The notes under the pieces: generated by a model | Databases searched by the model: none | What the model saw: only the letters and a program-made list of their open reading frames with translations | Told to the model about the DNA's origin: nothing | Position numbers and translations under genes: made by a program | Shown: positions 34,378-56,420 of the stretch, in pieces | Numbering within the stretch: the stretch's first letter is position 1 | Layout: every line of letters starts with the position of its first letter | From: an uncultured Geobacteraceae bacterium | Lineage (GTDB): Bacteria; Desulfobacterota; Desulfuromonadia; Geobacterales; Pseudopelobacteraceae | Reading direction: 5' to 3' | Length of the DNA: 56,420 nucleotides | Assembly: GCA_903876875.1 (NCBI GenBank) | Contig: CAIRBT010000074.1 | Location: 1 to 56,420 of the forward strand

Positions 34378-35043
34378 ATGAACATCGATGGCTTATATGA
34401 AATAATCGATATGGAATTATGGGACAATCCGGTTGCCGGCCTCCCTATACCGGTACATATCAGTATTCAGGGGAAAAAGGGTAAGGTTCATTTTACCGGC
34501 TTTGATGGCCGCATGGAACTCAAAAAGAGCGGAGACCGATACCTGTTTACCTGGGCGGGGCACTACGAAGGGGATCGCCCGTGCGGCTATGGAAACTTCA
34601 CCAGTGTCGATGGTACCCTGCATGGCAGATTGTATATGTACGACTGCTACGAAACCTCTTTTGTGGCTCGTAAAACAACTTTAGTGAAAAAACGGGCCCG
34701 GAGGATTAACCGGGAACTGCTGGTCGTGACCGCCCGGCAACCGTTTAAAGAATGGGCTGAAGCCCAGTCTGGCTGGAACGGCCATGCCATGGGGGATGTG
34801 ACTGTCTATCGTTCGGTCTATCTGATTCTGCCACAGGAAACCGCCCAGCAGCGGGATCTGCTGCTGGCTGTTTTGTATGAAGAAATATTTACGGAGCAGC
34901 TCTACAGCCGAAGCAGAAACGATGCCACCTGGCCCCTGAACAGAACCGTAGCACTTTTTAAAAGATGGTTTGACGTGGAATTTCATCCGGTGATTACCGA
35001 TCTGAGTGATGACGACACTGCTGACATTGGCGGCTGCGAATAG
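34378..35043 (+). CDS. Hypothetical protein, first gene of the cluster
   Basis: 221 residues, no signal peptide or membrane segment. The N-terminal half is beta-rich with regularly spaced Gly and aromatic residues (VHISIQGKKGKVHFTGFDGR, YLFTWAGHYEGDRPCGYGNF) and looks like a small beta-barrel. The C-terminal half is helical (LLLAVLYEEIFTEQLYSR, VALFKRWFDVEFHPVI) and ends in an acidic tail (DLSDDDTADIGG). I do not recognise a family. AGGA precedes the ATG. It lies 29 bases before the small membrane protein gene, so probably leads the operon. Confidence 0.6.
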   Translation: MNIDGLYEIIDMELWDNPVAGLPIPVHISIQGKKGKVHFTGFDGRMELKKSGDRYLFTWAGHYEGDRPCGYGNFTSVDGTLHGRLYMYDCYETSFVARKTTLVKKRARRINRELLVVTARQPFKEWAEAQSGWNGHAMGDVTVYRSVYLILPQETAQQRDLLLAVLYEEIFTEQLYSRSRNDATWPLNRTVALFKRWFDVEFHPVITDLSDDDTADIGGCE

Positions 35044-35072
35044 AAAAACTTATAAGAAACGAGGGACAGAGC

Positions 35073-35333
35073 ATGGCACAGCCAGAAACAACAGGGGAAA
35101 ACCGGAGTCGCATCAGCTATGGCAGTGCGCCGAGTGCCAGTGAAAATGTCCACACGGCATGTTCGGTGTTTGGCAAGACCGTGGCTGGTCTGGGGGTCGG
35201 GATAGTGACCGGCATCAGTCTGGCGGTGGTGGCCGCCGCCAGTGAAGTGGCCGTACCTGCCATATTGCTGCTGAAAGTGCTCGGATTTACCGGTGGTGCC
35301 TTCGGATTTGTCAGTGGAATCAAGAAGGATTAA
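35073..35333 (+). CDS. Small Gly-rich membrane protein, copy A
   Basis: 86 residues. A polar N-terminal third is followed by HTACSVFGKTVAGLGVGIVT and a second hydrophobic segment (ASEVAVPAILLLKVLGFTGG), ending in GFVSGIKKD; two membrane passes are likely. It is a clear paralogue of the gene at 40911-41180 (same length class, same NVHTAC/NIHTAC entry, same GIKKD/GIKRD ending). Small two-helix proteins of this size are typical of magnetosome membranes (for example MamC, MamF), but I cannot equate it with one. GAGGGA ribosome site. Confidence 0.65.
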   Translation: MAQPETTGENRSRISYGSAPSASENVHTACSVFGKTVAGLGVGIVTGISLAVVAAASEVAVPAILLLKVLGFTGGAFGFVSGIKKD

Positions 35334-35474
35334 TGAGATAATTAAATCTCGTAGTTGACACGTATACAAAAATATGAAATAAGTTCAGTCAAGTAACTGG
35401 ATTTTGCTGGTGATACATCTGAAATTTAATTTACAATGAGTTGAAGAATATTTTGCATATACGCGGAGGGATCT

Positions 35475-36554
35475 ATGGCTGCTCCAAAAATTATGAATGT
35501 TGGTATTGATTTCGGAAGTTCTATCAGTGTGATATCTGCCGATAACGGCGTCCGTGCCTGTGTGCCGAGTTTTGTCGGTTTCCCGAAGGACATGATCGCC
35601 CGGAAGTTGCTTGGCAAAGAGTATCTGGTGGGTGATGATGCCATCAAGAACCGCCTTTCTTGTAACATTTTCCGTCCTCTGGAACGGGGGGTTCTCAAGT
35701 ATTCGGATCACATTGAGGAAAATGAAAGCGATTACCGACAGATCGTCTGGGTAGCCCAGATCATCTTCAATCACCTGATAAATCTTGCCACCCAGGGGAG
35801 ACCCCAGGATTTCATCATCCGTGCCTGCATCGGTACCCCCTCACTGGCCAACGACAAAAACAAACAGGCACTTCTTGATTTGACTGAATCAATGATGGAT
35901 TGTGCCCAGATTGTTTCCGAGCCCTTCTCGGTTGCTTACGGCATGAGTCTTTTGAGTAACACCCTTATCGTAGACATCGGTGGCGGAACCGTTGACCTCT
36001 GTCGTATGCAGGGTGTGTACCCGACCCAGGAAGACCAGTTGACAGTGTACAAAGCGGGCGATTATATCGATAACGTTTTCTTTGATCTGCTGGATGCCAA
36101 GTATCCTGATGCAAATTATACCATTAATATGCTCAGAACCTTTAAAGAAGAGAACGCCACTATTTCTGATACCGATGAAAAACTGGTACTGACTCTGCCG
36201 GTCTGCGGCAGGCCGACCGAACTGGATTTGACTGAGGAGCTGCGTCAGGCGTGCAGTTCCATCGTTCCGGATATAGCCGATGCCATCAAATACCTCATCT
36301 CTACCCATGACCCTGAATTTCAGGAAGAGTTAAAAGGCAATATTGTCCTGGCCGGCGGAGGCAGCAAGATCATCGGTCTCTGTGAAGAACTGGAAAAATA
36401 TATGACCCAATCACTGGGCTATGGCAGCGTGCGCAGGGTACCCGATCCGGTCTATGCCGGTGCCAACGGAGCTTTGATGTACTGCAAGGATATGCCCGAG
36501 GATTTCTGGATTGAATTGAAGGAAAGCAGAGTACAAAAAACTGCAAAAAAATAG
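35475..36554 (+). CDS. mamK: MamK, actin-like magnetosome filament protein
   Basis: 359 residues, like Magnetospirillum MamK (~350). Actin-fold nucleotide sites: phosphate 1 NVGIDFGSS near residue 8-16, phosphate 2 V-D167-I-GGGTVDL, and adenosine site NIVLAGGGSKI. The MamK-type stretch FVGFPKDMIARKLLGKEYLV followed by GDDA separates it from MreB and ParM. MamK filaments position magnetosomes in a chain and segregate it at division. GGAGGG ribosome site seven bases before the ATG; ~140 bases of non-coding DNA precede, possibly with a secondary promoter (TTGACA at ~35352). The acidic repeat protein two genes on may be its partner. Confidence 0.93.
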   Translation: MAAPKIMNVGIDFGSSISVISADNGVRACVPSFVGFPKDMIARKLLGKEYLVGDDAIKNRLSCNIFRPLERGVLKYSDHIEENESDYRQIVWVAQIIFNHLINLATQGRPQDFIIRACIGTPSLANDKNKQALLDLTESMMDCAQIVSEPFSVAYGMSLLSNTLIVDIGGGTVDLCRMQGVYPTQEDQLTVYKAGDYIDNVFFDLLDAKYPDANYTINMLRTFKEENATISDTDEKLVLTLPVCGRPTELDLTEELRQACSSIVPDIADAIKYLISTHDPEFQEELKGNIVLAGGGSKIIGLCEELEKYMTQSLGYGSVRRVPDPVYAGANGALMYCKDMPEDFWIELKESRVQKTAKK

Positions 36555-36803: not shown

Positions 36804-37277
36804 ATGGAGAGCCGTTTCAGAATCCGCACCGTAATAGCCCGGGTAGCTCGCGGGGGGCGCTCGTTGCTGGTAGGTTCGGTCGCCGCCGAAACCTCGAAGA
36901 TTAGCCGGGTACTGACCTTTCTGGTTCCCGACCGCAGGGAGCTTCCGGCAGGCAGGAAAATTAAGAAACTGACAAAAAACCTGGATCGCACCAGACTGCG
37001 TCTGGTACGGCGTGTGACTCGCACCGTAGGGTTCGGGTGGCAACAACACCCCGTGGCCTCGGGAGTTCGCCGGGTGGTCAGAGTTGAACAAAAGCTATTT
37101 CGGGTAACGTCGCGGTTGTTTCGCGCCATTGCCGCAAAAGCGGCTGAAAATATTCCGCCCGAACAGGGGGGCTTTGCACAGTCAGTCCGGAGCGGAAAAC
37201 GGGTCATCAAGGCTCTGGCCAGATTATGGCGGTTCAACATTGAGCAGCGTAATGGACTGAATCCAACACACAGATAA
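36804..37277 (+). CDS. Highly basic Arg-rich protein
   Basis: 157 residues with an extreme excess of Arg/Lys over Asp/Glu (e.g. RIRTVIARVARGGRS, TRLRLVRRVTRTVG, SGVRRVVRVEQKLFRV) and few aromatic residues; predicted mostly helical. No signal or membrane segment. Located between mamK and the very acidic repeat gene, 40 bases before the latter's start. GGTGAGG precedes the ATG. A reverse-strand reading (36785-37240) exists but lacks context. No family; charge complementarity with the next gene's product suggests a polycation/polyanion pairing, or binding to the filament or the membrane surface. Confidence 0.55.
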   Translation: MESRFRIRTVIARVARGGRSLLVGSVAAETSKISRVLTFLVPDRRELPAGRKIKKLTKNLDRTRLRLVRRVTRTVGFGWQQHPVASGVRRVVRVEQKLFRVTSRLFRAIAAKAAENIPPEQGGFAQSVRSGKRVIKALARLWRFNIEQRNGLNPTHR

Positions 37278-37317
37278 AGAAATGCCAGATATCGCGAGAA
37301 ACGGGAAGGAGAAGACC

Positions 37318-39951
37318 ATGGGAAATACTATTATTCTTGATACGATTTCAAAGACGTTGAATGCGGGAGGATCAGCACTTGTTTCGGCAGTTGATGCTGG
37401 AGCGTCGGCGTTTAATTGTACCATGTCGGCATTGTCGCCGGGAGAGAGAACCAAGCTTGGCATCAGGATTAAAACCCTGGAATTGCGAATTCAGTCACTT
37501 TACGTTGATTTTGCAAAAGCCAACGCAAAACACCCTGATCCGGCTGCGGCATTAGAATCGAAAGCAGCGCAGGATATCCTTTCAATTATTTCGCAACTCG
37601 GTGCCGAAATCAACAAGATGAAAAAGCGGGTTGCTGACATTGATGCTGCCAAGGCCGAGCAAAAAGCGGCCAAGGGCACGTGCTGTCTCTCCTCACTATC
37701 CCGTTCCTTCTCGAGCATTCTGCCCGGTGAAAAATCTGCTTTACATAATAAGATACATGCCAATGAGAAGAAAATCGAGGGTCTCTACTGTGACTTTGCC
37801 AAAGAAGCGGCCAAGCATCAGGATCTGGCTGCCGTTATCGCTTCAAAGGCCGTTTCCGGAATCTATGATAAAATTAATGAGCTTACCGCAGAAAATGTCG
37901 GTCTGAAACAAAAAATTGCCGATCTGTCCAAGCCGAAAGCACCGGTAGCAAAACCGGCACCGGGGAAACCGGCACCCACAAAACCGGGCGACAAGAAGAT
38001 GCCACCTGAAGCAACCGGCGTGGCTTCGTTCTTTGTGCGTGCCATAACTGAAAAGGTAACCGGATATCTGCCAGGCGATAAATCCGGGGTGGACAAGAAA
38101 ACAGCAGAAACAGAAAAGAAATTACAGGCACTTTATCTGGAAGTCGGCAAGGAAACAGCAAAATACCCCGATCCGGCCGAAGCTATGGTGGCTGAACCGG
38201 TCAAAAAACTTCTGGCACAGATTGCCGCACTCAAGGCGGACTTGACACCTGCGGCACCGGCAAAGGCGGAAAAACCGGCGGCGAAACCTGCCGTAGCAGT
38301 GGTGGCAGCAGTGCCAGAGGCCCCAGTTGCCGGACCTGAAACTGTAGATGCTGAGCCGATTGCTACCGCTGAAGTAGCTGCCGAGGTTGTTGTGGCGGTT
38401 TCGGAAGCAACTGAGGTTGACGAACCGGTCGAAGGCAGTGAGCCCGTTGTTACTGATACGGTTGAAGTTATTGCAGCTGCCGAAGTCAATGAAGCCGCTG
38501 AAGTAGCTGAAGCCGCTGAAGTAGCTGAAGTAGCTGAAGTAGCTGAAGTAGCTGAAGTCACGGAAGTAGCTGAAGTCACGGAAGCTACTGAAACGGTTGA
38601 AGTAGCTGAAATGCCAGCCCCCTCCAGCGAACTGTCCGAATCGGTATCCTACGGCAGCATCAGGATTAAGCCTTTTTCGCTTTCCCTGAATGCAGAACCA
38701 GCTACAGCGGTCAGTGAGGAGGAAACGGTAGCGGCAGTAGCTGAAACCGAAGAAGAAGCGGTTGTGACGGACGCAGCGGTCGAAGAAGAGGCCGTTGAGG
38801 TGGTCGCAGAAACCGTAGAAGAGGCTGTGGTTGCAGTCGAAGAGGCGGTGTCGCAAGAAGCTGTCGCACCGGTAGAAGAACTGTCGGAGCCGGAAGTGGC
38901 TGCCGAAGCCGAACTGTTACCGACAGTGGCAGAGATTGCAGCGGTTGAAGCTGAAACAACGGAGGAAGTGGCTACAGACGCAGCTGTTTGTGTCACTGAG
39001 GATGTTGCAGAAACAATCTCTACTGAGCTGGCAGAGAACGCCCCGGCTGTGGAAGCGGTCGATACCGTTGAAGTTACCGATGCAGCGGTGGTGCTTGAAT
39101 TCCCACCGGCCATTAATAGTGAACCAGCCTTCGCGCCGTCTGCCGACGAAGAACCTGCCGATTCGGAAGCTGTGGCTGTCGAAGCAGAGAACGTGGCAGA
39201 GGTTGCGGTCTCCACCTCGGCTTTGGAACTCCCACCCGGCATACCGGTGTATGATGCGGAGGAAATAGTCGTTCCTTTGGTTGAAAGTGATGCTGTCGTT
39301 GTCGAAGAAGTCGCCGGTGATGCTGTTTTCGATGAACTGGCAGACACTGGTGCCGAAACTACGGAAGTCACTGAAGTTGAGATGACGGATCCGGCTCAGC
39401 AGGATGATGAAACCACCACCTTGCAGGATGCTGAAAGTTCCGTGTCTGCGTTGAGCGACCTGACGAGTATCCGCACCAAAAGCTATACCCCCTTCCTGTC
39501 ACTGGGAGAAACCAGGGTAAAACGTGCCGCATATCCAAACACAAGTTTTTCATCGCTCTATGCCCGGGAAGAAAACCAGTCTCCCGTTGAAACAATCGCT
39601 GAGTCTGCTGAAACAACAGTGGAGCAGGAAACCCCGGTAGATCAGGAAGCAGAAGAGGTCACTACTGGCTCGGTTGACGCGGAAGCCACAACCGGTACGG
39701 AAGTAGCGGAAGTTCCTGAAACCTCGGTAGAGGAGAAACCAGCCATTGAGAATGCTGATGCCCCGGTGGAGTTGCCGTTATCCCTGCCGCCAGCTGTCGG
39801 GAGTGATTCGGTTGAAGAAGGTGCAACCGACAATGCCGCAGTTAAGAAAGATGGGGAAGATGGGGAAGATGGGGAAGATGCGCCAGTGAATTCTGTTCTG
39901 TTTGATTCCTCACCCTTTTCACGCAGAAAAACTGCGAAAAAGCGGAGATAG
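37318..39951 (+). CDS. Large acidic repeat protein, MamJ-like by position and composition
   Basis: 877 residues from ATG 37318 (AAGGAG seven bases upstream; an earlier in-frame ATG at 37282 lacks such a site). Three ~75-residue coiled-coil units open the protein, each with a LPGEKS-like start, a LYxDFAKxxAKxxD core and a Lys-rich helix (about 37-110, 138-212, 250-315), the second and third separated by a Pro/Lys linker. About 500 Glu/Val/Ala-rich residues follow, including AEVAEVAEV tandem units (38478-38612) and a DGEDGEDGEDA tail just before a basic C-terminus. There is no clear family. MamJ, an acidic repetitive protein, tethers magnetosomes to MamK and is encoded beside mamK in Magnetospirillum, so a similar role is plausible but unproven by homology. 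Confidence 0.6.
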   Translation: MGNTIILDTISKTLNAGGSALVSAVDAGASAFNCTMSALSPGERTKLGIRIKTLELRIQSLYVDFAKANAKHPDPAAALESKAAQDILSIISQLGAEINKMKKRVADIDAAKAEQKAAKGTCCLSSLSRSFSSILPGEKSALHNKIHANEKKIEGLYCDFAKEAAKHQDLAAVIASKAVSGIYDKINELTAENVGLKQKIADLSKPKAPVAKPAPGKPAPTKPGDKKMPPEATGVASFFVRAITEKVTGYLPGDKSGVDKKTAETEKKLQALYLEVGKETAKYPDPAEAMVAEPVKKLLAQIAALKADLTPAAPAKAEKPAAKPAVAVVAAVPEAPVAGPETVDAEPIATAEVAAEVVVAVSEATEVDEPVEGSEPVVTDTVEVIAAAEVNEAAEVAEAAEVAEVAEVAEVAEVTEVAEVTEATETVEVAEMPAPSSELSESVSYGSIRIKPFSLSLNAEPATAVSEEETVAAVAETEEEAVVTDAAVEEEAVEVVAETVEEAVVAVEEAVSQEAVAPVEELSEPEVAAEAELLPTVAEIAAVEAETTEEVATDAAVCVTEDVAETISTELAENAPAVEAVDTVEVTDAAVVLEFPPAINSEPAFAPSADEEPADSEAVAVEAENVAEVAVSTSALELPPGIPVYDAEEIVVPLVESDAVVVEEVAGDAVFDELADTGAETTEVTEVEMTDPAQQDDETTTLQDAESSVSALSDLTSIRTKSYTPFLSLGETRVKRAAYPNTSFSSLYAREENQSPVETIAESAETTVEQETPVDQEAEEVTTGSVDAEATTGTEVAEVPETSVEEKPAIENADAPVELPLSLPPAVGSDSVEEGATDNAAVKKDGEDGEDGEDAPVNSVLFDSSPFSRRKTAKKRR
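38478..38612 (+). repeat. 9-bp tandem repeats encoding (E-V/A-A)n
   Basis: Units GAAGTAGCT / GAAGCCGCT / GAAGTCACG, about 14 in all, inside the acidic repeat gene. Near-identity of consecutive GAAGTAGCT copies (38518-38565) suggests recent slippage expansion. A second short tract of GGGGAAGAT (39853-39880) lies near the 3' end of the same gene. Confidence 0.75.
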
Positions 39952-40100: not shown

Positions 40101-40871
40101 ATGGATACAGTGCAGGCGAAAAAAGCCAAGCTGCTCAAGGAAATGGGCGAGCGGGAACAGCATCTGAAAAGTGGTCGTCTGGTGGTCGAATCGTCTTTGG
40201 ACGTGGTATTTGCAATTGATACCACCGGAAGTATGGAGTCCTACATCCATGAGGTGCGGGACAATATCATTAAAATAATGGAAGAGGTTTTCGAATTCAC
40301 CCAAGGAGTGAGAATGGGAGTCATCGCCTATAAAGACCATGGCGATGAGGGGGAAGATGAGTTTTATCTGACCAAAATACTCCCCCTGACCTTTGATAAA
40401 AAAGAAATTGTTGAGTTTCTCCGCTCACCGGATCTGCATATCGGGGTTGGTGGAGATGGTGCAGAGGCTGTGGAATGCGCTCTCTACGACGCGGCAAATC
40501 TCAACTGGGGACTCTCCAAAACGCCAAAGGTCATCGTGCTGGTTGGCGACAAACCGGCCCACGGTGTCATTGACAGTTTTCGTGCCTGCCCCCGCATGAA
40601 GGACTACCGGCAGGAGGTTGAGGTTATCAAAAGTAAGGGAATCAAGATTTACCCGATTCTCTGCAACAATATTCATGAGACCGAATCTAGTTTTCGCTGG
40701 ATGGCCAGTGAAACCGACGGTACCTTTATCTATCTGGACGATATTACCAGTTTAAGTGATATTCTGACCGGTATATGTCTGAAAGAGACCGGTAAACTGC
40801 TGGAATATAGATGTAAACTGCTTGAATATGGTGACAAGGTGCGGTTGGAACATATCGTACTGCTTAACTGA
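40101..40871 (+). CDS. VWA-domain protein
   Basis: 256 residues. After a charged N-terminal helix, a von Willebrand A domain spans ~34-225 with the MIDAS sequence D40-TTGS44-M, a Gly/Asp-rich loop (VGGDGAEAVECALYDAA) and the strand VIVLVGDKPAH. The form with DTTGSM and IAYKDHGDEG is closest to the stand-alone VWA of VwkA/eukaryote-like kinases; no kinase domain is attached. Metal-dependent adhesion or protein-assembly role is the usual reading. Within the cluster it follows the acidic repeat gene and precedes the second small membrane paralogue. No membrane segment. Not a known core mam product. Confidence 0.75.
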   Translation: MDTVQAKKAKLLKEMGEREQHLKSGRLVVESSLDVVFAIDTTGSMESYIHEVRDNIIKIMEEVFEFTQGVRMGVIAYKDHGDEGEDEFYLTKILPLTFDKKEIVEFLRSPDLHIGVGGDGAEAVECALYDAANLNWGLSKTPKVIVLVGDKPAHGVIDSFRACPRMKDYRQEVEVIKSKGIKIYPILCNNIHETESSFRWMASETDGTFIYLDDITSLSDILTGICLKETGKLLEYRCKLLEYGDKVRLEHIVLLN

Positions 40872-41195: not shown

Positions 41196-41432
41196 ATGCA
41201 AAAAAAGCTCATATTTTTCATTGTAGTTACATTACTCCTGCTTTCCGTGCTCTTCCTTGACGGGAACAGTGGCCCGGTGCCGGTCAAGTTCATACTTGGT
41301 GATCCGAAACCGGTCGGACTCAGTACGGTTGTACTGGTCAGCGTCTCTGTCGGGGTGTTGTTGGCAGTGGTTGTGATGCTGTCGTTCAAGGCACTACGCA
41401 AGCCGAAGAAAGCTCCCCAGCTGATCGAGTGA
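41196..41432 (+). CDS. mamL: MamL, LapA-like small membrane protein
   Basis: 78 residues with two membrane helices (about 4-20 and 44-66), PVKFILGD between them, and a basic tail (FKALRKPKKAP). This is the LapA/DUF1049 pattern shared by MamL, which is essential for forming magnetosome invaginations in Magnetospirillum; the cationic tail is thought to act on the cytoplasmic leaflet. The ribosome site is weak, so it may be translated by coupling with the upstream gene. Confidence 0.75.
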   Translation: MQKKLIFFIVVTLLLLSVLFLDGNSGPVPVKFILGDPKPVGLSTVVLVSVSVGVLLAVVVMLSFKALRKPKKAPQLIE

Positions 41433-41493: not shown

Positions 41494-41841
41494 GTGGCAA
41501 TTGATGTAAGATATGGTTTGTCGCACATGGGCGATATGTTTATGGATTTAGTCCATAAAACAGCTGATTCGGCGACAATCTGCTCTAAAAAACTTTTTTT
41601 GGCATACGATATCACATCACTTACGTGCAAAAAAGATCAGTTTTCCCGGAAAATAGGGGAGCGGGTTACGATTCTGGTGAATGGCGGTACGACGGATCTG
41701 ACCACCGATGAAATACTAACCGGGTATATCGCACGTCTTAATGAAATCGAAGCGGCTATCGCCGTCCATGAAGAAGAGAAAAGAAATCTGATAAACCCGT
41801 TTCACGTGGTAAAAACAGCAGATGAAACAAATATAAACTGA
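41494..41841 (+). CDS. Hypothetical helical protein
   Basis: 115 residues from GTG 41494 (AGGGGAGAG upstream). No signal or membrane segment; two predicted amphipathic helices (VYGLSHMGDMF-like start, LTCKKDQFSRKIGERVTILV) and a second helix pair after TTDLTTDEILTGYIARLNEI. The spacing KIGERV...L...D...I..LNEIE faintly resembles the coiled-coil units in the acidic repeat protein, but I would not call homology. Unknown function; between mamL and a 59-residue gene. Confidence 0.55.
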   Translation: MAIDVRYGLSHMGDMFMDLVHKTADSATICSKKLFLAYDITSLTCKKDQFSRKIGERVTILVNGGTTDLTTDEILTGYIARLNEIEAAIAVHEEEKRNLINPFHVVKTADETNIN

Positions 41842-49564: not shown

Positions 49565-50266
49565 GTGAGAGAGGTTATTGAAAAACGCTACGCCAAAGAG
49601 TTGCATCTGATTACCGACAAGCCGGTGCTTGCTCAGGATAAGCGGCATAAGCGTCTCGCCCATAAGGTGAAAACCCGTGTATGGCACCAGCAGACTGTCT
49701 CGGCTAAAATTGCCATGGTAGCGTTTTCGTTACTGATATTTGCCGGCAGTATATATTATTATAATCTGTTTACGACCGAACTGTTTGCGGTACGACTTGA
49801 GTCTGCCCAGATTGAAGCAGAGTTACAACGGCGCAATGACCTGATACCAGGATTAGTCAAGGCGGTAGCTGATTATATGAATTACGAGGGGCGGGTGTTC
49901 GTACATGCGGCCGATGTGCGAAGTGCCCTTGGTTCCCTGAAGGATATGACCAGTGATGGTGCCACCCAGCCACTGGATACCCAGACCCTCAATAATTTTA
50001 AAAGTGCAATTTCTAAATTTCAGGCGGTTGCCGAGAATTATCCGGATCTGAAATCGTCCATAACGTATCAGAATTTAATGACCGAACTGGCAAATACGGA
50101 AACAAGGCTGGCAGTTGCCCGGGCTCACTACAATACGGCAGCCAATATGTACAACACCAGTCTGGAGCTGGTCCCCGGCTTTTTCTTTGGCTATCCCCTT
50201 GGGTTCCGGCACGCAAAGACGTTTATTTCTGAAAAAGAAACCCATAAGCCAGAAACAGCAAAATGA
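49565..50266 (+). CDS. mamQ: MamQ, LemA-like membrane protein, copy 2
   Basis: 233 residues from GTG 49565. A basic N-terminal part (KHKRLAHKVKTR) precedes one membrane helix (IAMVAFSLLIFAGSIYYYN), then the LemA domain: VRLESAQIEAELQRRNDLIP, GLVKAVADYMNYEGRVF and a C-terminal amphipathic end (NMYNTSLELVPGFFFGYPLG). It keeps the QRRNDLIP motif better than copy 1. Starts six bases after mamE and overlaps the next gene by ATGA. Confidence 0.83.
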   Translation: MREVIEKRYAKELHLITDKPVLAQDKRHKRLAHKVKTRVWHQQTVSAKIAMVAFSLLIFAGSIYYYNLFTTELFAVRLESAQIEAELQRRNDLIPGLVKAVADYMNYEGRVFVHAADVRSALGSLKDMTSDGATQPLDTQTLNNFKSAISKFQAVAENYPDLKSSITYQNLMTELANTETRLAVARAHYNTAANMYNTSLELVPGFFFGYPLGFRHAKTFISEKETHKPETAK

Positions 50267-51372
50267 GACAGATAATCAAATATCTGCTATTTGTCGGATT
50301 CCTGGCGGCGGCTCTCATTGCTGCCGCCAATTTTGATCTCACATCACTCTCACTGCCGAAGCCCCAGAAGAGTGGGGTGGTGACGCAGAAAAGCTTTCGG
50401 GGCGTCACGATCTCGCAAAAACCGTCGGCGATCTTGAGCGGTCTGTCCGGTGTGGTTTCCTTTGATTACGCCCCCGCTTCGGCACTGACCGCCGCCGCCG
50501 CCGATGACCAGATTCTGCTCTGGCAGCTGCCCGAAACAACCCCGCTGCGGGAAATAGCCTGCGGTCCCGGTTTTCAGGTGCTCTCTCTCCGCTTTCTTGC
50601 GGGTGGTACCCTGATTGCGGTGGGGGGGATGAACAACGATAATACGGGCAGTATCAAGATTTTTGATGCGACTTCCGGTACCCAGAAACTGCAGTTCGAT
50701 GAGGCGGAGCCGATTATCAGTCTGGATCCCCATCCGAATGGTAAACAGCTCTTGATAACCGGCGAAAGCTATATCAAAGTGATTGAGGTGAAAGACGGAA
50801 ATTTGGTGGCCATTATGCAGAAGAGCAGTCCGGTGGCGCGGGCCAGCTTTTACGGCAATGGTAATTTCATCCTCCAGTCCGACACCCTGTCGCTCTATGA
50901 TGTGAACAAGCGTGCCCTGTCCGGCTCCGTTGACAAGGCCTCTCCGCTGTTTTTCCGCAAGGGGATGGATGGTGCCACTTTTAGCTGGCTGTCGGCCGAA
51001 GGGGTGACCATTGTAACTGCGGGGCAGCCGGGGAAAAAATTTTTCCCTGTTGATACCAGGGGGGTGCTCTCCTTTGATGTGGACAGGCAGGGAGCCTGGG
51101 GGCTTTTCCTCCTTGATGGCCAACAAATGGCACTGCGGGAATTGGCTACCGGCAAGACTCTTAAGACGATTTCCCTGGGTGCAGCGGCTGCCGATGTGCT
51201 GCTGACTGCCGATGGCAACAGCGCCTATGTGCAGTTTACCAGTGGTGCCATCGGTGTCTTTGATGTGGGGTATCAGAACAAGCTGAAGAGCCTGAAGTTT
51301 GCCCTGAAAAAGTTTGTGGGAAGCATAAAAAGTAAAGCGACCCCGGTGGAAAAACCGGTGGATCCCCAATAG
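50263..51372 (+). CDS. Membrane-anchored beta-propeller-like protein
   Basis: 369 residues. One N-terminal membrane helix (IIKYLLFVGFLAAALIAAAN) then repeated WD-like beta units of about 40 residues (DQILLWQLPE, GSIKIFDATSGTQKL, YIKVIEVKDGNLVAI, GAIGVFDVGYQNKL), probably a propeller of seven blades facing the lumen/periplasm. No catalytic motif. ATGA overlap with mamQ. No Mam name fits. Likely a scaffold for the periplasmic/luminal proteins (MamE, MamP). Confidence 0.6.
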   Translation: MRQIIKYLLFVGFLAAALIAAANFDLTSLSLPKPQKSGVVTQKSFRGVTISQKPSAILSGLSGVVSFDYAPASALTAAAADDQILLWQLPETTPLREIACGPGFQVLSLRFLAGGTLIAVGGMNNDNTGSIKIFDATSGTQKLQFDEAEPIISLDPHPNGKQLLITGESYIKVIEVKDGNLVAIMQKSSPVARASFYGNGNFILQSDTLSLYDVNKRALSGSVDKASPLFFRKGMDGATFSWLSAEGVTIVTAGQPGKKFFPVDTRGVLSFDVDRQGAWGLFLLDGQQMALRELATGKTLKTISLGAAAADVLLTADGNSAYVQFTSGAIGVFDVGYQNKLKSLKFALKKFVGSIKSKATPVEKPVDPQ

Positions 51373-51382
51373 CCGGTACCCT

Positions 51383-52264
51383 ATGCTCTACCGATTTATC
51401 ACATCTGGTTATACGGATCTGCTTGCCTATGCCACGGCCTTTCTGCTTACGGTCTGGTTTTTCATCTCCTGGCAGTATGCACCGTATCTGCCCGATTATG
51501 TGGCTGCGGTACCCCCCGCGTACGGGTTGGCCGTTGCGGCATTCAGCGGAGCGTTACTAATCTGCAAATATGCCTGTCTTGAGGGACATGCCCTTTCGCT
51601 CCGGGTGCTGAACGTTGAAAAGTCGCAGCTGTCTCAGGCCATAAAAAGCCGTGATGGGGAGCTGCGGGAAGCGTCGCAGAATATCGCCCAGCTCACGGTC
51701 ACCATGGGGGAACTCCAGAATAAAATAGCTGTCATGGAGGCAAACTCACCGGATCGGCAGCTGTCTGAAATGCGCATGAAGTTGCGCAGTGCCGAAGATG
51801 ATAAGGTGGCTGCCCTCTCGGTGCTTCTGAAAAATCTTCAGACACGGGCACATGCCATGCTGAGCCTGTCCGATGACCAGCTCCAGTATGCCGCCGATGT
51901 GTTGCGTCAGGAGATCGCGCTGGTTGAAAACGAACTCAAACGGGGAGCTTTTTCCTACTACGAACTCTGTATCAAGATCGTGGACATTAGTGAAAAACTC
52001 ACGGAGCTCAAAGAGATCAATCTGGTTTCCTCCTTTGACCAGACCGTGAACGCTGATTCGGTTACTGATGCGTGGCTCAACTTTATTACGGCAAACGACA
52101 ATACGGATCCGGACGCCATTGAACGATCATTTAAATTTTTTAAGGTTGCCTTCCATCCGGATCGTTTCCCCTCGGAAACGCTTAAAGAAGAGGCCGCTAA
52201 ATATTTCAAGCAGAGCATTAACGTACACAGCTCCGTAAAGAGAATGGATACATCAAAACCATGA
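51383..52264 (+). CDS. Membrane coiled-coil protein with degenerate J-domain
   Basis: 293 residues. Two N-terminal membrane helices (TDLLAYATAFLLTVWFFISW and YGLAVAAFSGALLICKYAC) followed by a coiled coil (~80-150, Ile/Leu/Gln heptads) and a C-terminal helical part ending with FKVAFHPDRFPSETL, the HPD motif of J-domains. The preceding helix lacks the usual YxxLGV, so Hsp70 stimulation is uncertain. Overlaps the TauE gene by ATGA. Could recruit a chaperone to the magnetosome membrane; unproven. MamT and other magnetosome chaperones differ. Confidence 0.55.
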   Translation: MLYRFITSGYTDLLAYATAFLLTVWFFISWQYAPYLPDYVAAVPPAYGLAVAAFSGALLICKYACLEGHALSLRVLNVEKSQLSQAIKSRDGELREASQNIAQLTVTMGELQNKIAVMEANSPDRQLSEMRMKLRSAEDDKVAALSVLLKNLQTRAHAMLSLSDDQLQYAADVLRQEIALVENELKRGAFSYYELCIKIVDISEKLTELKEINLVSSFDQTVNADSVTDAWLNFITANDNTDPDAIERSFKFFKVAFHPDRFPSETLKEEAAKYFKQSINVHSSVKRMDTSKP

Positions 52265-53178
52265 AAAAAATACTCATCCCCCTCCTGATACTGCTGATTA
52301 TGGCCGCCACCGCCATGGCCGCAGGTCCCATGGATGGCCCGGTTGCTATTGAGGGACACGCCGTGGTGGCCGATCTGCCGGAAGCACTTCTGCTGATCGT
52401 GTTCGGCTGTGTGGTGGGGTTGATCGGTACGCTGATTGGAGCCGGTGGTGGTTTCATTCATGTGCCGATGCTGATGATCTTTTTTAATTTTACCCCCCAG
52501 TTGGCCATCGGTACCTCCATTACGGCGGTCTTCATGAATGCACTGTCAGGGACATTTTCCTACGTCACCCACAAACGGATTGATTATGATATCGGCCTCA
52601 AGTTTGCCACGGCGGCGGTGCCGGGGGTGCTGGTGGGGGCTGTCGTTGCCCAGCATTTTACCTTTACCACCTTTTCCATCTTTTTCAGTGTGACGCTGAT
52701 GCTGCTTTCACTGCATCTTTTTGCCGAAAAAGATATCTCCATTATGCTGACCAACGTGCCGGAAAAGCCGGAAGTCCGTTTGCTGATAGATGCGGAGGGG
52801 GAAACCCATCTCTATGCGCCTGACATGTCCATCGGGCTGGCGGGAAGTTTCTTTACCGGTATTTTCTCCGGTCTGTTCGGTATCGGTGGTGGCATTATCC
52901 ATGTACCACTGATGTACTCCGTACTCGGCATGCCGGTGCATATCGCCACGGCAACGTCCCACTTTATTCTGGCAATCACCAGCTTCTTTGCGGTGGTGGT
53001 GTTCACCGGCATGCATGAGATTGATCTTGATTTTGCCATTTTCATTGGGGTGGGAGCTATTCTTGGTGCCTATTTTGGTGCCCGGATGTCGCGGAAAACC
53101 CGCCCCCGTTCGATAAAACGGGCGATTGCGGTCTGTCTGCTGTTGTTGGCAATAAAACTAATTACCGGTGTGATGTAG
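52261..53178 (+). CDS. TauE/SafE-type membrane protein (MamO C-terminal-like)
   Basis: 305 residues. A signal/first helix (IPLLILLIMAATAMA) and the TauE fold: two halves each with a GxGGGxxxVP signature (GLIGTLIGAGGGFIHVPML and GLFGIGGGIIHVPLMYS). In Magnetospirillum MamO the second half is a TauE-like domain carrying the same motif; here no protease domain is joined and no mamO protease is seen in the window. So it may be a MamO C-terminal equivalent, a stand-alone anion transporter, or both. Located among mam genes with ATGA overlap to the J-domain gene. Confidence 0.75.
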   Translation: MKKILIPLLILLIMAATAMAAGPMDGPVAIEGHAVVADLPEALLLIVFGCVVGLIGTLIGAGGGFIHVPMLMIFFNFTPQLAIGTSITAVFMNALSGTFSYVTHKRIDYDIGLKFATAAVPGVLVGAVVAQHFTFTTFSIFFSVTLMLLSLHLFAEKDISIMLTNVPEKPEVRLLIDAEGETHLYAPDMSIGLAGSFFTGIFSGLFGIGGGIIHVPLMYSVLGMPVHIATATSHFILAITSFFAVVVFTGMHEIDLDFAIFIGVGAILGAYFGARMSRKTRPRSIKRAIAVCLLLLAIKLITGVM

Positions 53179-53191: not shown

Positions 53192-53620
53192 GTGGATCAA
53201 AGTAAAAGAAAATTTATTGGAGCCTGTCTTGGCGGCATTGCAGCACTGGCAGTTGCCGGCATCACTTCGGTGGTCTATCCGGTGTTTCGTTACTACCTGA
53301 TACCCCGCCCTGACGGCGGCGGTAAGGGGAAAACCACCATTCCGGTTAAGGATATCCTGCCGGGTGATGCGAAGTTCTTTGAATACAACGGCACTGCTGC
53401 CGTACTGGTAAAAAAACAGGATGGTACATTTGTGGCTCTGTCCGCCGTCTGCCCCCATCTTGGTTGTATCGTGCAATGGGAACAGGATCGGCAGGATTTC
53501 CTCTGCCCCTGTCACGCCGGTTATTTCACCGCCGACGGCGCCGTGATCTCCGGTCCTCCCCCCCGTGCCCTGGAAAAGGTTCCCTTCACGGTGGCCAACG
53601 GGATCGTGACGGTAGGGTAA
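53192..53620 (+). CDS. Rieske iron-sulfur protein of a bc complex
   Basis: 142 residues from GTG 53192 (TAGGGGAGA upstream). One membrane anchor with a twin-Lys/Arg start (SKRKFIGACLGGIAALAVAG), then the Rieske domain with both cluster boxes: CPHLGC and CPCHAGYF. The 2Fe-2S cluster takes the first electron from quinol at the Qo site. The RK(F) pattern fits a Tat-type anchor. Starts 13 bases after the TauE gene and precedes cytochrome b. Confidence 0.9.
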   Translation: MDQSKRKFIGACLGGIAALAVAGITSVVYPVFRYYLIPRPDGGGKGKTTIPVKDILPGDAKFFEYNGTAAVLVKKQDGTFVALSAVCPHLGCIVQWEQDRQDFLCPCHAGYFTADGAVISGPPPRALEKVPFTVANGIVTVG

Positions 53621-53659: not shown

Positions 53660-54763
53660 ATGGATTTTTTGAAACAACTATATGACTGGATTGATGTCCG
53701 CTTTGGCGTACGTGAGGTAGTGGACGAGAAGCGTTCCGGCCATCTGCTCCCTCCCAATATAAATGCCTGGTACTCCCTCGGCAGTGTGCTGCTGGTGATT
53801 TTCTGTCTGCAGATTGTGACCGGCCTGCTGTTGATGCTCTACTACGTGCCGGATATTGACAAGGCCTTTGGCAGTGTGGCGTTTATCATGGACGAGATTC
53901 CCCTTGGTCGCTTAATTCGTCTCTTCCATGCGGTCGGATCGAGCATGATGCTGCTGGTTATCCTGCTGCATATGTTTTCCATTCTGTTCATGGGGAGCTA
54001 TAAGGCCCCCCGGGAACTCCACTGGCTCTCCGGTTTTTTTCTGCTGCTGCTGGCCATGGGAATCTCCCTGACCGGTTATCTGCTCCCCTGGAATCAGCTC
54101 TCCTTCTGGGCTACCACGGTGGCAACCGACTGTGTCAGCTCCATTCCCTTTGTCGGCTCCGATCTGGTAGAACTGCTCCGGGGCGGCAAGCAGGTCGGCT
54201 TTCACACCTTGGGACGCTTTTATACCCTGCATGTCGGGGTACTTCCGGCAACTATTGCCGCCCTCATCGGCACCCACCTCTTCCTGATCCGGCGCACCGG
54301 TGTCTCCACCCCCCCCTTTGGTCTCGAAGATACCACCAACCAGTGGCAGGGGGATAAGTTCGTCTGTAAGGATCATCCGGATGGCATTCCGTTCTTCCCC
54401 AATTTCGTGCTTCAGGATCTGATATCCATTTCGCTCTATCTGGCCTGTCTCATGATGTTCGTATTTTTCTTTCCCAATATGTTCATACCGTCAACCTCAT
54501 ATATGCCGGCCAATCCGCTGGTGACACCATCCCATATCAAGCCGGAATGGTACTTTCTGGCAAACTACCAGACCCTTAAACTATTTCCCAGTGAGATAGT
54601 CGGCTTGACCGTACAGGCCTGTGCCATGACGTTCCTGGCTCTGTTGCCCTTTATCGACCGGGGTACGGAAAAGCACCCCCTGAAACGGCCGGTATTTACC
54701 ATGACCGCCATCGGCTGTATTCTGCTCTGGATCGGCCTGACCATATGGGGGCTCTATTCATGA
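53660..54763 (+). CDS. Cytochrome b of a bc complex
   Basis: 367 residues, b6 plus subunit IV in one chain. Heme ligands: H-x13-H in LFHAVGSSMMLLVILLHMF, and H-x14-H in TLHVGVLPATIAALIGTHLF; the 14-residue spacing is b6-like. The quinol-site motif PEWYF is present (HIKPEWYFLANYQTL). With the Rieske gene 40 bases upstream and a five-heme cytochrome overlapping downstream (ATGA), it forms a menaquinol-oxidising complex. No motif marks it as magnetosome-specific; its place in the cluster suggests it. Confidence 0.92.
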   Translation: MDFLKQLYDWIDVRFGVREVVDEKRSGHLLPPNINAWYSLGSVLLVIFCLQIVTGLLLMLYYVPDIDKAFGSVAFIMDEIPLGRLIRLFHAVGSSMMLLVILLHMFSILFMGSYKAPRELHWLSGFFLLLLAMGISLTGYLLPWNQLSFWATTVATDCVSSIPFVGSDLVELLRGGKQVGFHTLGRFYTLHVGVLPATIAALIGTHLFLIRRTGVSTPPFGLEDTTNQWQGDKFVCKDHPDGIPFFPNFVLQDLISISLYLACLMMFVFFFPNMFIPSTSYMPANPLVTPSHIKPEWYFLANYQTLKLFPSEIVGLTVQACAMTFLALLPFIDRGTEKHPLKRPVFTMTAIGCILLWIGLTIWGLYS

Positions 54764-55536
54764 GACAGCTGGTTCCTGCTTTTCTGCTTGTTTTTGCCCT
54801 GCTTTCGGCACTGCCGGTTACCGCCGCTGTTACGCCGCCAAACGTCTGCGTAACCTGCCATGGTGGGCTTGCCGCCCGTCTCGGCATGCCGGTCAAAATC
54901 TGGAAGACGAGTATTCACGCAGAACATGGCGTCTCCTGTAACGCCTGTCATGGCGGAGATCCCATGGACGCGGTCAACTCCATGAGCCAGGCCCGCGGAT
55001 TTCGTGGGGTGCCGGTTGCTACGGAAATTCCGTCCATTTGCGGTGGCTGCCACATGGGTATTGCCAAGTATCATGCGGCAAGCCCCCATGGCAGAGCCTT
55101 GGGGAGAGGCGGCCCCACCTGTGTTACCTGCCATGGCAGTCATGGCGTAGTCCGGGCTACCATTGACCAGATCAACCGTAAAAACTGTACCCCATGCCAT
55201 GGTTTTGAAAGTGCTTTGGAGATCAAGAACATTATGATGAAAACCGATGGCATGCTGAAAGCCATCGAAGACCGGATAATAGAGCTTAAAAATCAGGGCA
55301 TATTGACCGATACGTTGGAGAAGCGGTTGTTCTCACTGCGGAACCAATCACACTCGCTGTTTCACACCCTTAATATTGACCTGATCCGTCAGGAATCTGC
55401 CCATCTTCAGGCGGAGTTGGAAAAAAATAACAGCATCGGCAGCACCGGAACCGGGCTCTCCATCGGTACTCTCGCCGTGGGGTGGGCACTTATTCTTGCA
55501 CTGCTGTTCTATTTAATCAAAAAAAATATTGATTAA
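54760..55536 (+). CDS. Five-heme cytochrome c, membrane-anchored
   Basis: 258 residues from ATG 54760 (ATGA overlap with cytochrome b; an in-frame ATG at 54745 is upstream within that gene). Signal peptide (LVPAFLLVFALLSALPVTA), then five CxxCH motifs (CVTCH, CNACH, CGGCH, CVTCH, CTPCH), a coiled helix region, and a C-terminal membrane helix (AVGWALILALLFYLIKKN). It would be the electron acceptor from the Rieske protein, in place of cytochrome c1, passing electrons to periplasmic or luminal carriers (MamP/MamE hemes or PpcA-type cytochromes). Confidence 0.9.
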   Translation: MRQLVPAFLLVFALLSALPVTAAVTPPNVCVTCHGGLAARLGMPVKIWKTSIHAEHGVSCNACHGGDPMDAVNSMSQARGFRGVPVATEIPSICGGCHMGIAKYHAASPHGRALGRGGPTCVTCHGSHGVVRATIDQINRKNCTPCHGFESALEIKNIMMKTDGMLKAIEDRIIELKNQGILTDTLEKRLFSLRNQSHSLFHTLNIDLIRQESAHLQAELEKNNSIGSTGTGLSIGTLAVGWALILALLFYLIKKNID

Positions 55537-55604
55537 TGGCTTTAAATTGCCTATGGCAGATACGTTTGAGTAGGAACTGCACTATTTTTTAAAGGAGAGC
55601 GCAT

Positions 55605-55844
55605 ATGCAACCAGCACAATGCCCGAATGCAATTACGGTAGCCGGACATAAAACAGGCCAGGGACTTGGTTTGAAGACAGCCACCTGCTGCAAGACTATG
55701 GGTACCGGTCTGACCGGAAAAGGGCTCGGTCTCGGCCTGGGTCTCGGTCTGGGAATCGGTATTTGGGGTCCGGTCGGCCTGGTCGGTCTGGGAATCGTCG
55801 GCGGCTATTATTACTGGAAAAAAGCAACTGAGATGCTTGATTGA
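55605..55844 (+). CDS. mms6: Mms6-like protein with Leu-Gly repeat, no acidic tail
   Basis: 79 residues. The segment TGKGLGLGLGLGLGIGIWGP (37-56) followed by a hydrophobic helix and YYYWKK is near-identical in form to the TGK-(GL)n-AWGP segment of Mms6, the tightly crystal-bound biomineralisation protein of Magnetospirillum. Mms6 ends in an acidic Asp/Glu patch that binds iron; here the protein stops at KKATEMLD, without that patch. N-terminal part has four Cys. AAAGGAG seven bases upstream. The next gene, 30 bases on, is a Glu-rich repeat protein. Confidence 0.8.
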   Translation: MQPAQCPNAITVAGHKTGQGLGLKTATCCKTMGTGLTGKGLGLGLGLGLGIGIWGPVGLVGLGIVGGYYYWKKATEMLD

Positions 55845-55874
55845 TCTGTGAGTTGATGAACCGGGAGGTTATGG

Positions 55875-56420
55875 GTGGCTAAGAAAAACAAGCTCAAGGG
55901 TAAGAATATCACGAGACCGCGGCAAAGTCAGGCCGTTGAGGTGTGTAAGGTTACTGAGGAGACTGAGGTTACTGAAGAGACTGCTGACTCCCCTGAGATG
56001 GGAACCATTTCGCCTGAAATCATAGCCTCTGCTGAAGTTCCGGCCTCTCTTGAGCAGCCAGTTGTCCCTGAAAAAAGAAAGCCCCGGAAGACTCTGGTTG
56101 AGCGCTTGATTCAGGCCGGAGTTGTTGAGGCACCCCGAACCGTAGAACCACTCGTTGCGGAACCACCGGTAGTTGTAACACCGGCCGAAGCGGCACCGGT
56201 TGAAGAAGCACCGGTTGAAGCGACACCAGTTGAAGCGACACCAGTCGAAGAGACACCGGTCGAAGAGACACCGGTTGAAGCGACACCGGTCGAAGCGACA
56301 CCGGTCGAAGAGACACCGGTCGAAGCGACACCGGTCGAAGAGACACCGGTCGAAGAGACACCGGTCGAAGCGACACCGGTCGAAGAGACACCGGTCGAAG
56401 CGACACCGGTCGAAGAGACA
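55875..56420 (+). CDS. Glu/Pro/Val repeat protein, partial (runs off the window)
   Basis: About 182 residues from GTG 55875 (GGGAGG six bases upstream) to the edge, no stop. Opens with a basic segment (AKKNKLKGKNITRPRQ), then Glu/Thr stretches (EVTEETEVTEETADSPE), another basic segment (EKRKPRKTLVERLIQAGVV), and from about 56178 tandem 15-base units coding for E-A/E-T-P-V. It is acidic and probably disordered. The reverse-strand open frame here (56020-56406) is an artefact of the repeat. No family; similar in design to the acidic repeat protein at 37318. Confidence 0.65.
   Translation, partial: MAKKNKLKGKNITRPRQSQAVEVCKVTEETEVTEETADSPEMGTISPEIIASAEVPASLEQPVVPEKRKPRKTLVERLIQAGVVEAPRTVEPLVAEPPVVVTPAEAAPVEEAPVEATPVEATPVEETPVEETPVEATPVEATPVEETPVEATPVEETPVEETPVEATPVEETPVEATPVEET
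56178..56420 (+). repeat. 15-bp tandem repeats (E-A/E-T-P-V)n
   Basis: Unit GAAGCGACACCGGTC, with GCG alternating with GAG at the second codon, repeated at least 15 times in register and continuing past the edge. The A/E alternation is irregular (not a strict higher-order unit), and third-base identity between copies is near complete, as in recent slippage. Confidence 0.9.

What the first reader, a model, noticed from the sequence alone, without database searches (positions are those of the whole stretch)
34378..56420. A magnetosome gene cluster in a Geobacter-like genome
Seen: mamK, mamL, mamP, mamM, two mamQ, mamB, mamA, mamI, mamE and an Mms6-like gene on one strand, with many ATGA overlaps, interleaved with about 17 other genes. 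Known: these families mark magnetosome clusters in Alphaproteobacteria and Deltaproteobacteria. Inferred: the organism forms magnetosomes; the triheme PpcA and five-heme cytochromes put it near Geobacter/Desulfuromonas, where such clusters are little described. A lineage with extracellular electron transfer and magnetosomes together would be notable.
Basis: partly seen in the sequence, partly recalled or inferred. Interest (0 to 1): 0.95.

Follow-up and report, generated by a model that had tools for sequence, protein, structure and literature searches.

The report
Magnetosome cluster carrying a bc complex
A Geobacter-related bacterium holds the genes for magnetic organelles, and among them sits a respiratory-type electron-transfer operon that appears to have moved with this cluster between bacterial lineages and likely supplies or removes electrons while magnetite forms.

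Summary
In detail: 34378 to the contig end is a co-directional magnetosome gene cluster (MGC). MamK and MamM pass curated cut-offs; MamP, B, E, A, Q, I, O and an Mms6/MamD-like gene match below theirs. A sister species is collinear across the supposed join, so the contig is not chimeric there. An MGC in this genus is already in print (Uzun 2020, three MAGs). The new part was missed: the "five-heme cytochrome" is the third gene of a Rieske / cytochrome b / five-heme-c operon (53192-55536) after MamO-Cter. All 8 MGC contigs of this genus and of MAG_22309_dsfv_022 that reach so far have it. Its cytochrome b forms a clade apart from the Geobacteraceae chromosomal type; full-length copies occur in 7 of 9 genomes of the order with MamK and 0 of 132 without. 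MAG_22309 belongs to a distant lineage: none of 77 searched relatives has a cytochrome b above 40% identity, and its MGC lies beside mobile-element genes. I infer a quinone-linked redox partner for the magnetochromes MamP and MamE; a 2014 review passage calls MamP's partner(s) undetermined. Four literature searches showed no report of it, but the published MGC figures could not be seen.

The parts
34378..35043 (+). 221-aa protein, first gene of the cluster
   Evidence: conserved before mamK in L002, L004, L005, L006; dN/dS 0.11
35073..35333 (+). small hydrophobic Gly/Ala-rich protein, paralogue of 40911-41180
   Evidence: both sequences match the same genes in relatives
35475..36554 (+). mamK, actin-like filament
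   Evidence: NF040964 412 bits, over cut-off; tree
36804..37277 (+). uncertain ORF, possibly a degenerate Mad23-like copy
   Evidence: 61% identity, dN/dS 0.26 to L002; the same place in L002 matches the Mad23-like domain at 30%
37282..39951 (+). Mad23-like domain repeats with a long acidic tail (residues 331-889 are 25% D+E)
   Evidence: hhalign 97.3% to the ORF after mamO-Cter in Ca. Magnetobacterium casense; the name Mad23 is by position
40101..40871 (+). von Willebrand A domain protein
   Evidence: PF00092 4e-14; in 8 of the 9 loci L002-L010, not in L007
40911..41180 (+). small hydrophobic protein, paralogue of 35073
   Evidence: dN/dS 0.10
41196..41432 (+). mamL-like (position of man2)
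   Evidence: LapA domain 2.4e-5, below cut-off; position after Uzun 2022
41494..41841 (+). conserved 115-aa protein at the position of mad10
   Evidence: tblastn matches beside mamK in Nitrospirota and Desulfamplus loci; label by position only
42028..43032 (+). mamP, PDZ plus two magnetochrome heme motifs (CXXCH 282, 327)
   Evidence: NF040965 3e-66; PF18509
43014..43940 (+). mamM, CDF iron transporter
   Evidence: NF033615 375 bits, over cut-off
43937..44626 (+). mad31 by position, weak EcsC match
   Evidence: PF12787 0.009; between mamM and mamQ as in Nitrospirota MGCs
44602..45159 (+). mamQ-2 (LemA family)
   Evidence: PF04011 2e-22, NF040966 5e-12
45177..46049 (+). mamB, CDF iron transporter
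   Evidence: NF033616 3e-69, below cut-off
46046..46468 (+). mad2 by position, hydrophobic protein
   Evidence: between mamB and mamA as in Nitrospirota MGCs
46522..47163 (+). mamA, TPR scaffold
   Evidence: NF040959 2e-39, below cut-off
47228..47461 (+). mamI
   Evidence: NF040963 1e-17, below cut-off
47465..49558 (+). mamE, trypsin-like plus PDZ with one magnetochrome-type CXXCH (359)
   Evidence: NF040960 1e-65, below cut-off; motif count
49565..50266 (+). mamQ (LemA family)
   Evidence: NF040966 6e-25, below cut-off
50263..51372 (+). WD40-like beta-propeller protein
   Evidence: WD40-type Pfam matches, best 5e-7, below cut-offs; not homologous to the MYR-1 ORFs at this place
51383..52264 (+). 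membrane coiled-coil protein with invariant HPD near its C-terminus (J-domain-like, weak)
52261..53178 (+). mamO-Cter (TauE family)
   Evidence: PF01925 1e-50; NF040961 C-terminus 1e-11; 100% hhalign to a MYR-1 gene
53192..53620 (+). Rieske [2Fe-2S] protein of the bc-type operon
   Evidence: PF00355 3e-15; CPHLGC and CPCH ligand motifs present
53660..54763 (+). cytochrome b, full length (b6 plus subunit IV parts)
   Evidence: PF00033 3e-56, PF00032 5e-19; His 90/104/191/206 and PEWY 295 intact
54745..55536 (+). five-heme cytochrome c (CXXCH 35, 65, 99, 126, 148), likely anchored by a C-terminal hydrophobic stretch
55605..55844 (+). Mms6/MamD-like Gly-Leu-repeat protein, predicted crystal-binding
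   Evidence: NF040916 3e-9, NF040917 2e-7, below cut-offs
55875..56420 (+). acidic repeat protein cut by the contig end
   Evidence: open at the window end; weak match (36%) to a 449-aa ORF at this place in L118

Best explanation
This is a magnetosome gene cluster that carries its own bc-type electron-transfer operon (a Rieske protein, a cytochrome b and a five-heme cytochrome c), which likely passes electrons between the membrane quinone pool and the heme-bearing magnetochrome domains of MamP and MamE and would thereby set the Fe(II)/Fe(III) ratio during magnetite formation. Shown: the genes, their intact cofactor motifs, their fixed place in the cluster, their own cytochrome b clade, and their co-occurrence with MamK. 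Inferred: that the three proteins form one complex; that it sits in the magnetosome (or the adjoining cytoplasmic) membrane; that its partner is MamP/MamE. The direction is unsettled. My preferred direction is menaquinol to Rieske/b to five-heme c to magnetochrome, as a counterweight to MamP-driven iron oxidation.
For: (1) Position: Rieske-cytb-c5-Mms6-like follows MamO-Cter in 8 of 8 MGC contigs of this genus and MAG_22309 that reach that far (window; L118, L120-L124; L044). (2) MGC-specific type: a cytb tree of 77 rows (quick search) splits with SH-aLRT 100; all 9 located MGC copies lie on one side, all 25 located other copies on the other; ten positions are invariant in the 9 and absent in the 25. 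(3) Co-occurrence: in the order 9 of 141 genomes have MamK over cut-off; a full-length cytb of 76% identity or more occurs in 7 of those 9 and in 0 of the other 132; one-sided Fisher p 2e-10, ignoring relatedness. (4) Transfer: the same unit sits in MAG_22309_dsfv_022 (G011); of its 77 searched relatives 73 have no cytb at E 1e-60 and 4 have 39-40%. Its contig is properly binned: ClpB on it is 92-95% identical to 11 of the 27 relatives searched. ClpB is only 56% identical to ours, while cytb is 77%, MamB 78% and the mad31-position protein 82%. (5) Cofactor motifs intact. (6) G006 and G007 hold both types, so the MGC type is not just the chromosomal one moved. (7) Arnoux 2014 says MamP's electron-transfer partner(s) remain to be determined and MamX's are unknown (PMC3971196, passages).
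Against: No biochemical evidence. Other MGC carriers lack it: in seven genomes of Nitrospirota or Desulfobacteraceae titles (G008-G010, G013-G016) no cytb exceeds 40% identity, and MYR-1's cluster continues past MamO-Cter without it, so magnetochromes work elsewhere without this operon. G085 (97% complete) has MamK but no cytb match at all; G098's contig ends after mamQ and cannot tell. In five carriers (G000, G119, G124, G126, G127) no full-length chromosomal-type cytb was found (unclassified fragments in G119 and G127), so the complex could also serve general respiration. A second, MGC-linked cytb copy is broken in our own genome (C89). The mamK on MAG_22309's MGC contig is only 51% identical and outside the window's MamK clade, so that cluster is not a plain copy of ours.
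Confidence: 0.55

Rival explanations
1. The operon is an ordinary respiratory bc-type complex of the cell that happens to lie in the island; magnetosomes do not need it.
For: Same three-gene layout and five heme motifs as the chromosomal operon in the two examples checked; our genome has no intact chromosomal-type copy.
Against: Separate clade; both types coexist in G006 and G007; 7 of 9 against 0 of 132 co-occurrence; carried into a lineage where 77 searched relatives have no cytb above 40%.
Confidence: 0.27
2. The complex energises the magnetosome membrane: quinol oxidation would release protons into the lumen and feed proton-coupled iron uptake by MamB/MamM, not redox chemistry of iron.
For: A Q-cycle complex with intact b-heme ligands and PEWY motif would move protons by established bc/b6f chemistry; MamB/MamM are CDF transporters.
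Against: An electron acceptor on the lumen side is still needed; precipitation of magnetite itself yields protons, so acid release is a cost; no test here.
Confidence: 0.12
3. The cluster is silent or decaying, and the cells make no magnetosomes.
For: A second MGC copy in the same genome is broken (cytb cut after about 121 codons on C89); uncertain ORF at 36804.
Against: dN/dS is 0.02-0.10 for seven mam/mad-position genes (K, L, P, M, mad31, Q-2, B), about as low as in two housekeeping genes (0.07, 0.09); the small unnamed genes reach 0.20 and the uncertain ORF 0.26. All core mam genes are open reading frames.
Confidence: 0.05

Closest known systems
MGCs of UBA8499/Pelobacteraceae MAGs (MAG_21600_9_004, MAG_13126_9_058; Uzun 2020, 2022)
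   Same: Same genus. L005 has our gene order from 34378 to mamQ, L009 the same from mamL on; the MAG_13126 contig also has the bc operon.
   Different: The passages and sections I read do not mention a Rieske/cytochrome b operon; the figures are not held. In L009 the VWA and small gene precede mamK.
Nitrospirota MGC (Ca. Magnetomonas LBB01, Ca. Magnetobacterium casense MYR-1)
   Same: mamK to mamO-Cter order with mad2, mad10 and mad31 positions (Uzun 2022 section).
   Different: Between mamQ and mamO-Cter ours has a WD40-like and an HPD-bearing protein, not homologous to the MYR-1 ORFs there; after mamO-Cter ours has the bc operon instead of the mad23-26 block.
Geobacteraceae chromosomal Rieske/cytochrome b/five-heme c operon (e.g. 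L130, L131)
   Same: Same three genes in the same order, five heme motifs in each of the two c proteins checked.
   Different: 58-68% cytb identity in the class at E 1e-140, separate clade, no mam match in the two fetched stretches.
MamX-MamZ-MamH redox module of Alphaproteobacteria
   Same: A redox module of magnetosome proteins proposed to act with a magnetochrome protein; MamZ has a predicted ferric-reductase domain (Arnoux 2014, passages).
   Different: No Rieske protein and no bc-type cytochrome b (recalled knowledge of the family).

Membership tests
Magnetosome gene cluster | Core genes mamA, B, M, K, P, Q, E, O, I together (list after Uzun 2020) | tested here: met
   All nine matched, two over curated cut-off and seven below; MamO only as its C-terminal TauE part, as in the Nitrospirota mamO-Cter
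Magnetosome gene cluster | MamK in the magnetosome clade, not MreB | tested here: met
   412 bits over the MamK cut-off; the MreB-like gene of the same genome scores 77; tree of MamK rows
Magnetosome gene cluster | Cells with membrane-bound magnetite or greigite | not testable with these tools
   needs cells
Nitrospirota form of the MGC | mad2 and mad31 at their fixed positions | tested here: met
   genes at 46046 and 43937 match those positions in Nitrospirota loci
Nitrospirota form of the MGC | man4-man6 block between mamQ and mamO-Cter | tested here: not met
   no homology of 50263 or 51383 to the MYR-1 ORFs there (hhalign under 1%); not filed under this form
bc/b6f-type quinol:cytochrome c oxidoreductase | Cytochrome b with four heme-ligand His and PEWY | tested here: met
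   His 90, 104, 191, 206; PEWY 295
bc/b6f-type quinol:cytochrome c oxidoreductase | Rieske cluster motifs | tested here: met
   CPHLGC and CPCH; Pfam
bc/b6f-type quinol:cytochrome c oxidoreductase | Quinol oxidation with a c-type acceptor | not testable with these tools
   biochemistry
Geobacteraceae chromosomal bc-type operon | Cytochrome b in the chromosomal clade | tested here: not met
   opposite side of an SH-aLRT 100 branch

The most novel reading that the evidence does not exclude
The magnetosome of this lineage has its own respiratory complex: a dedicated quinone-linked bc complex, encoded and horizontally moved with the organelle's genes, that electrically couples the magnetosome to the quinone pool through MamP/MamE and so controls crystal growth. 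It would be the first identified redox partner of the magnetochromes.
Probability: 0.45. Interest if true: 0.85.

Novelty: new variant of a known kind. Interest (0 to 1): 0.66.

Why it matters
Magnetite needs iron held at a set mix of Fe(II) and Fe(III), and MTB carry special heme domains thought to serve that, but where their electrons come from or go was stated as open in 2014 (PMC3971196, passages). A quinone-linked complex inside the cluster gives a concrete, testable answer in one lineage, and would join organelle biomineralisation to respiration. It also suggests a respiratory module as cargo of an MGC that crossed between distant lineages.

Tried and rejected
Chimeric join at 34.1-34.4 kb: rejected, collinear in L002. 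Five-heme c as an extracellular-electron-transfer marker: rejected, it is the third gene of the bc operon. MtrB/PioB in the genome: no match (its control rings in 1 of 14 genomes, below cut-off); other conduit families not searched. WD40-like and HPD-bearing genes as man4-man6 homologues: rejected. A full second MGC with its own mamK in our genome: not found; one MamK only, and outside the window no CDF gene above 30% identity to MamB (30% and 27%), only a partial cluster on C89. AlphaFold of 51383-52264 gave mean pLDDT 71 and about 60 at the HPD, too weak to name a J domain. G010:C68 (L127) is not the L019 contig (length differs) and was dropped from the comparison. Solved-structure search with the five-heme protein gave nothing useful. 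Literature searches.

The cytb tree is a quick one, with SH-aLRT only. Of the 120 listed homologues it holds 43 (P0121-P0165 without P0125 and P0162, identical to other rows), plus 34 rows from the window and loci. Matches under 1000 bases or under 50% identity were left out, which drops the broken or partial copies in G000 C89, G003 C25, G005 C284 and G003 C63. One homologue with 70% identity (P0150) falls on the chromosomal side, so identity alone does not separate the two types at that level. The synteny scan used L002-L048 (47 of the 80 loci); within those stretches cytb and Rieske matched in L044 alone, since the genus loci end before that place.
Full report
Observation. The window is G000:C74, a whole contig, of a 3.93-Mb genome in 191 contigs, 95.8% complete and 1.2% contaminated. 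From 34378 to the contig end the genes lie on one strand with short gaps or overlaps. MamK and MamM pass their curated NCBIfam cut-offs; MamP, MamB, MamE, MamA, MamI, two MamQ, the C-terminal part of MamO and an Mms6/MamD-like gene match their families below cut-off. GC falls from 0.54-0.59 at 13-33 kb to 0.47-0.55 in the cluster. The nearest relative locus, L002 (record title: uncultured Geobacteraceae bacterium, E14_bin-1988; MamK 97%), aligns with the window over 25548-46438 in five pieces (the longest four at 78-83%), without a break at the suspected join. dN/dS against L002 is 0.023 for mamK, 0.040 mamP, 0.026 mamM, 0.028 mamB and 0.091 mamQ-2; for glnE and mtnA 0.070 and 0.086. The cluster is real and under purifying selection.

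Who carries it. In the window's order 9 of 141 genomes have MamK over cut-off: 8 of 39 in the same genus and one in a second genus of the same family. By identical contig positions the other eight can be tied to named loci: G124 is G001 (E14), G125 is G006 (AlinenLipids), G126 is G002 (MJ-2014), G127 is G003 (A-4), G119 is G005 (LJ), G097 is G007 (MAG_13126_9_058), G098 is G004 (MAG_21600_9_004), G085 is G012 (A14). Uzun et al. 2020 placed three Pelobacteraceae MAGs, to judge by their table MAG_21600, MAG_13126 and MAG_21601, in genus UBA8499, with mam, mad and man genes (PMC7449369, passages and part of one section). So an MGC in this lineage is known. In a MamK tree of 81 rows the window sits in nine rows of Geobacteraceae/Desulfuromonadales (100/99), next to one further Desulfuromonadales row and two Nitrospirota-titled rows. 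Uzun et al. 2022 argue for transfer of this MGC type between Thermodesulfobacteriota and Nitrospirota (PMC9376291, two sections read).

Anatomy. The mamK-to-mamO-Cter order matches the Nitrospirota reference as described in PMC9376291, including the mad2, mad10 and mad31 positions (those three labels are by position). Three things differ. First, the 889-aa gene after mamK has Mad23-like repeats (hhalign 97.3% to the gene after mamO-Cter in MYR-1; the name Mad23 is by position) and a long acidic tail. Second, between mamQ and mamO-Cter lie a WD40-like propeller gene and a membrane coiled-coil gene with an invariant HPD, not related to the MYR-1 ORFs there. Third, after mamO-Cter comes a bc-type operon and an Mms6-like gene.

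The bc operon. Rieske (53192-53620), cytochrome b (53660-54763) and a five-heme cytochrome c with a C-terminal hydrophobic stretch (54745-55536) have intact cofactor motifs: CPHLGC/CPCH; His 90, 104, 191, 206 and PEWY 295; five CXXCH. The best solved-structure match of the cytochrome b is a full-length cytochrome b over 363 of 367 residues (6kls). Of nine MGC contigs checked downstream (window, G001-G007, G011), eight reach this place and all eight have the operon; G004's contig ends after mamQ. In three of the eight (L123, L124, L044) a Mad23-like gene lies between mamO-Cter and the Rieske gene. Elsewhere it is missing: in seven genomes with Nitrospirota or Desulfobacteraceae MGCs (G008-G010, G013-G016) no cytb exceeds 40% identity, and the MYR-1 cluster runs on past mamO-Cter without it.

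Is it MGC-specific? A protein search lists cytb clusters at 70-96% identity (P0121-P0153), then a run at 64-68%. A tree of 77 rows splits with SH-aLRT 100 into 40 and 37; P0150 (70%) and the 64-68% rows fall on the second side. All nine located MGC copies, including the second-cluster copy of G001, are on the first side; 25 located copies are on the second: 23 from MamK-free genomes of the family, and two from G006 and G007 on contigs where the fetched stretch shows no mam match. Ten residues separate the 9 from the 25 without exception. In 277 genomes of the class every full-length cytb of 71% or more lies in a genome with MamK over cut-off. Seven of nine MamK genomes have it; G098 is undecidable and G085 has no cytb match. 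Only two of the nine (G125, G097) also show a full-length chromosomal type; fragments in G119 and G127 are unclassified. In our genome the only intact copy is in the MGC.

Transfer. MAG_22309_dsfv_022 (G011), put in Desulfobulbales by Uzun 2020 and listed under another class in Uzun 2022, has the same unit from the mad10-position gene to the Mms6-like gene. Of its 77 searched relatives four have a cytb of 39-40% and 73 none at E 1e-60. The far end of its MGC contig is native: ClpB there is 92-95% identical to 11 of the 27 relatives searched, and GC returns to 0.56-0.58, near four other stretches of that genome (0.52-0.59). ClpB is only 56% identical to ours, while cytb is 77%, MamB 78% and the mad31-position protein 82%. 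Between MGC and native flank lie an integrase, a Rep3 initiator, a replication-relaxation protein, a DnaG-type primase and a TrwB-like ATPase. I infer that this part of the MGC moved as a unit with its bc operon. Against a plain copy: the mamK on that contig lies after the Mms6-like gene, is 51% identical and falls outside the window's MamK clade.

A second, partial MGC. Our contig C89 (L117) holds a second MamE with two heme motifs, a cytochrome b cut after about 121 codons, an arsenic-permease-like gene with an ArsR-like gene beside it (named by eye), then second copies of the mad2-position gene (49%), Rieske (72%) and MamP (61%). G001 has mamI-mamE-cytb (71%, intact) on C111, G003 a rearranged set on C25, L007 is a second, differently ordered MGC in the AlinenLipids genome, and G126 has a second MamK match below cut-off. 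Rieske or cytb genes thus recur next to mam genes in second clusters of three genomes (G000, G001, G003).

Mechanism. MamP and MamE have magnetochrome-type heme motifs. Arnoux et al. 2014 state that MamP's electron-transfer partners remain to be determined and that MamX's partners and direction of flow are unknown (PMC3971196, passages). A quinol:cytochrome c type complex whose c subunit would face the periplasm, or the topologically equal magnetosome lumen, is a natural partner. I favour electrons from menaquinol to the five-heme c and on to the magnetochromes, balancing iron oxidation by MamP; the reverse direction and a proton-supply role are not excluded. Complex formation, membrane and partner are inferred.

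Novelty. Searches for magnetosome with Rieske (7 papers listed, two read by passages), magnetosome gene cluster with cytochrome bc (0), magnetosome genes with cytochrome b and Deltaproteobacteria (3, one read by passages) and magnetosome with menaquinol and magnetotactic (1, listing only) showed no report of a bc complex in an MGC. A 2026 paper describes Desulfatiglandales MAGs with mam genes and putative extracellular electron transfer, and a Rieske gene next to a cytochrome c7/b5 gene, not said in the passages to lie in an MGC (PMC13343851, passages). The library is open-access only and figures are not held.

Noticed in passing
L117 (G000:C89) 1-5775: A second, partial and rearranged MGC in the same genome: MamE-2 with two heme motifs, broken cytochrome b, arsenic-permease-like insertion, mad2-like, Rieske-2, MamP-2.
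   Followed up: partly
G011:C14 30.9-46.8 kb (L126): Integrase, Rep3 initiator, replication-relaxation protein, DnaG-type primase and TrwB-like ATPase between the MGC and the native chromosomal flank: a mobile element next to a magnetosome cluster.
   Followed up: partly
window 51383-52264: MGC protein with two N-terminal hydrophobic helices, a long coiled coil and an invariant HPD between two helices; possibly a magnetosome J-domain protein.
   Followed up: partly
window 47465-49558: MamE here and in L118 has one CXXCH; three of three other relatives checked have two. In ours a tandem repeat around TDPWMQQ follows the single heme motif.
   Followed up: no
window 37282-39951 and 55875-56420: Long low-complexity acidic repeat proteins at both sides of the cluster, one next to mamK like MamJ in Magnetospirillum (recalled).
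   Followed up: no
window 32830-33249 (-): A small gene (HTH-like by eye) whose DNA is also found near the MGC in L004, L005, L006 and L009; candidate regulator or old boundary.
   Followed up: no
L118 13242-16916: DtxR-FeoA fusion, FeoB and a ParA-like gene follow the cluster in the sister species, beyond the end of our contig.
   Followed up: partly
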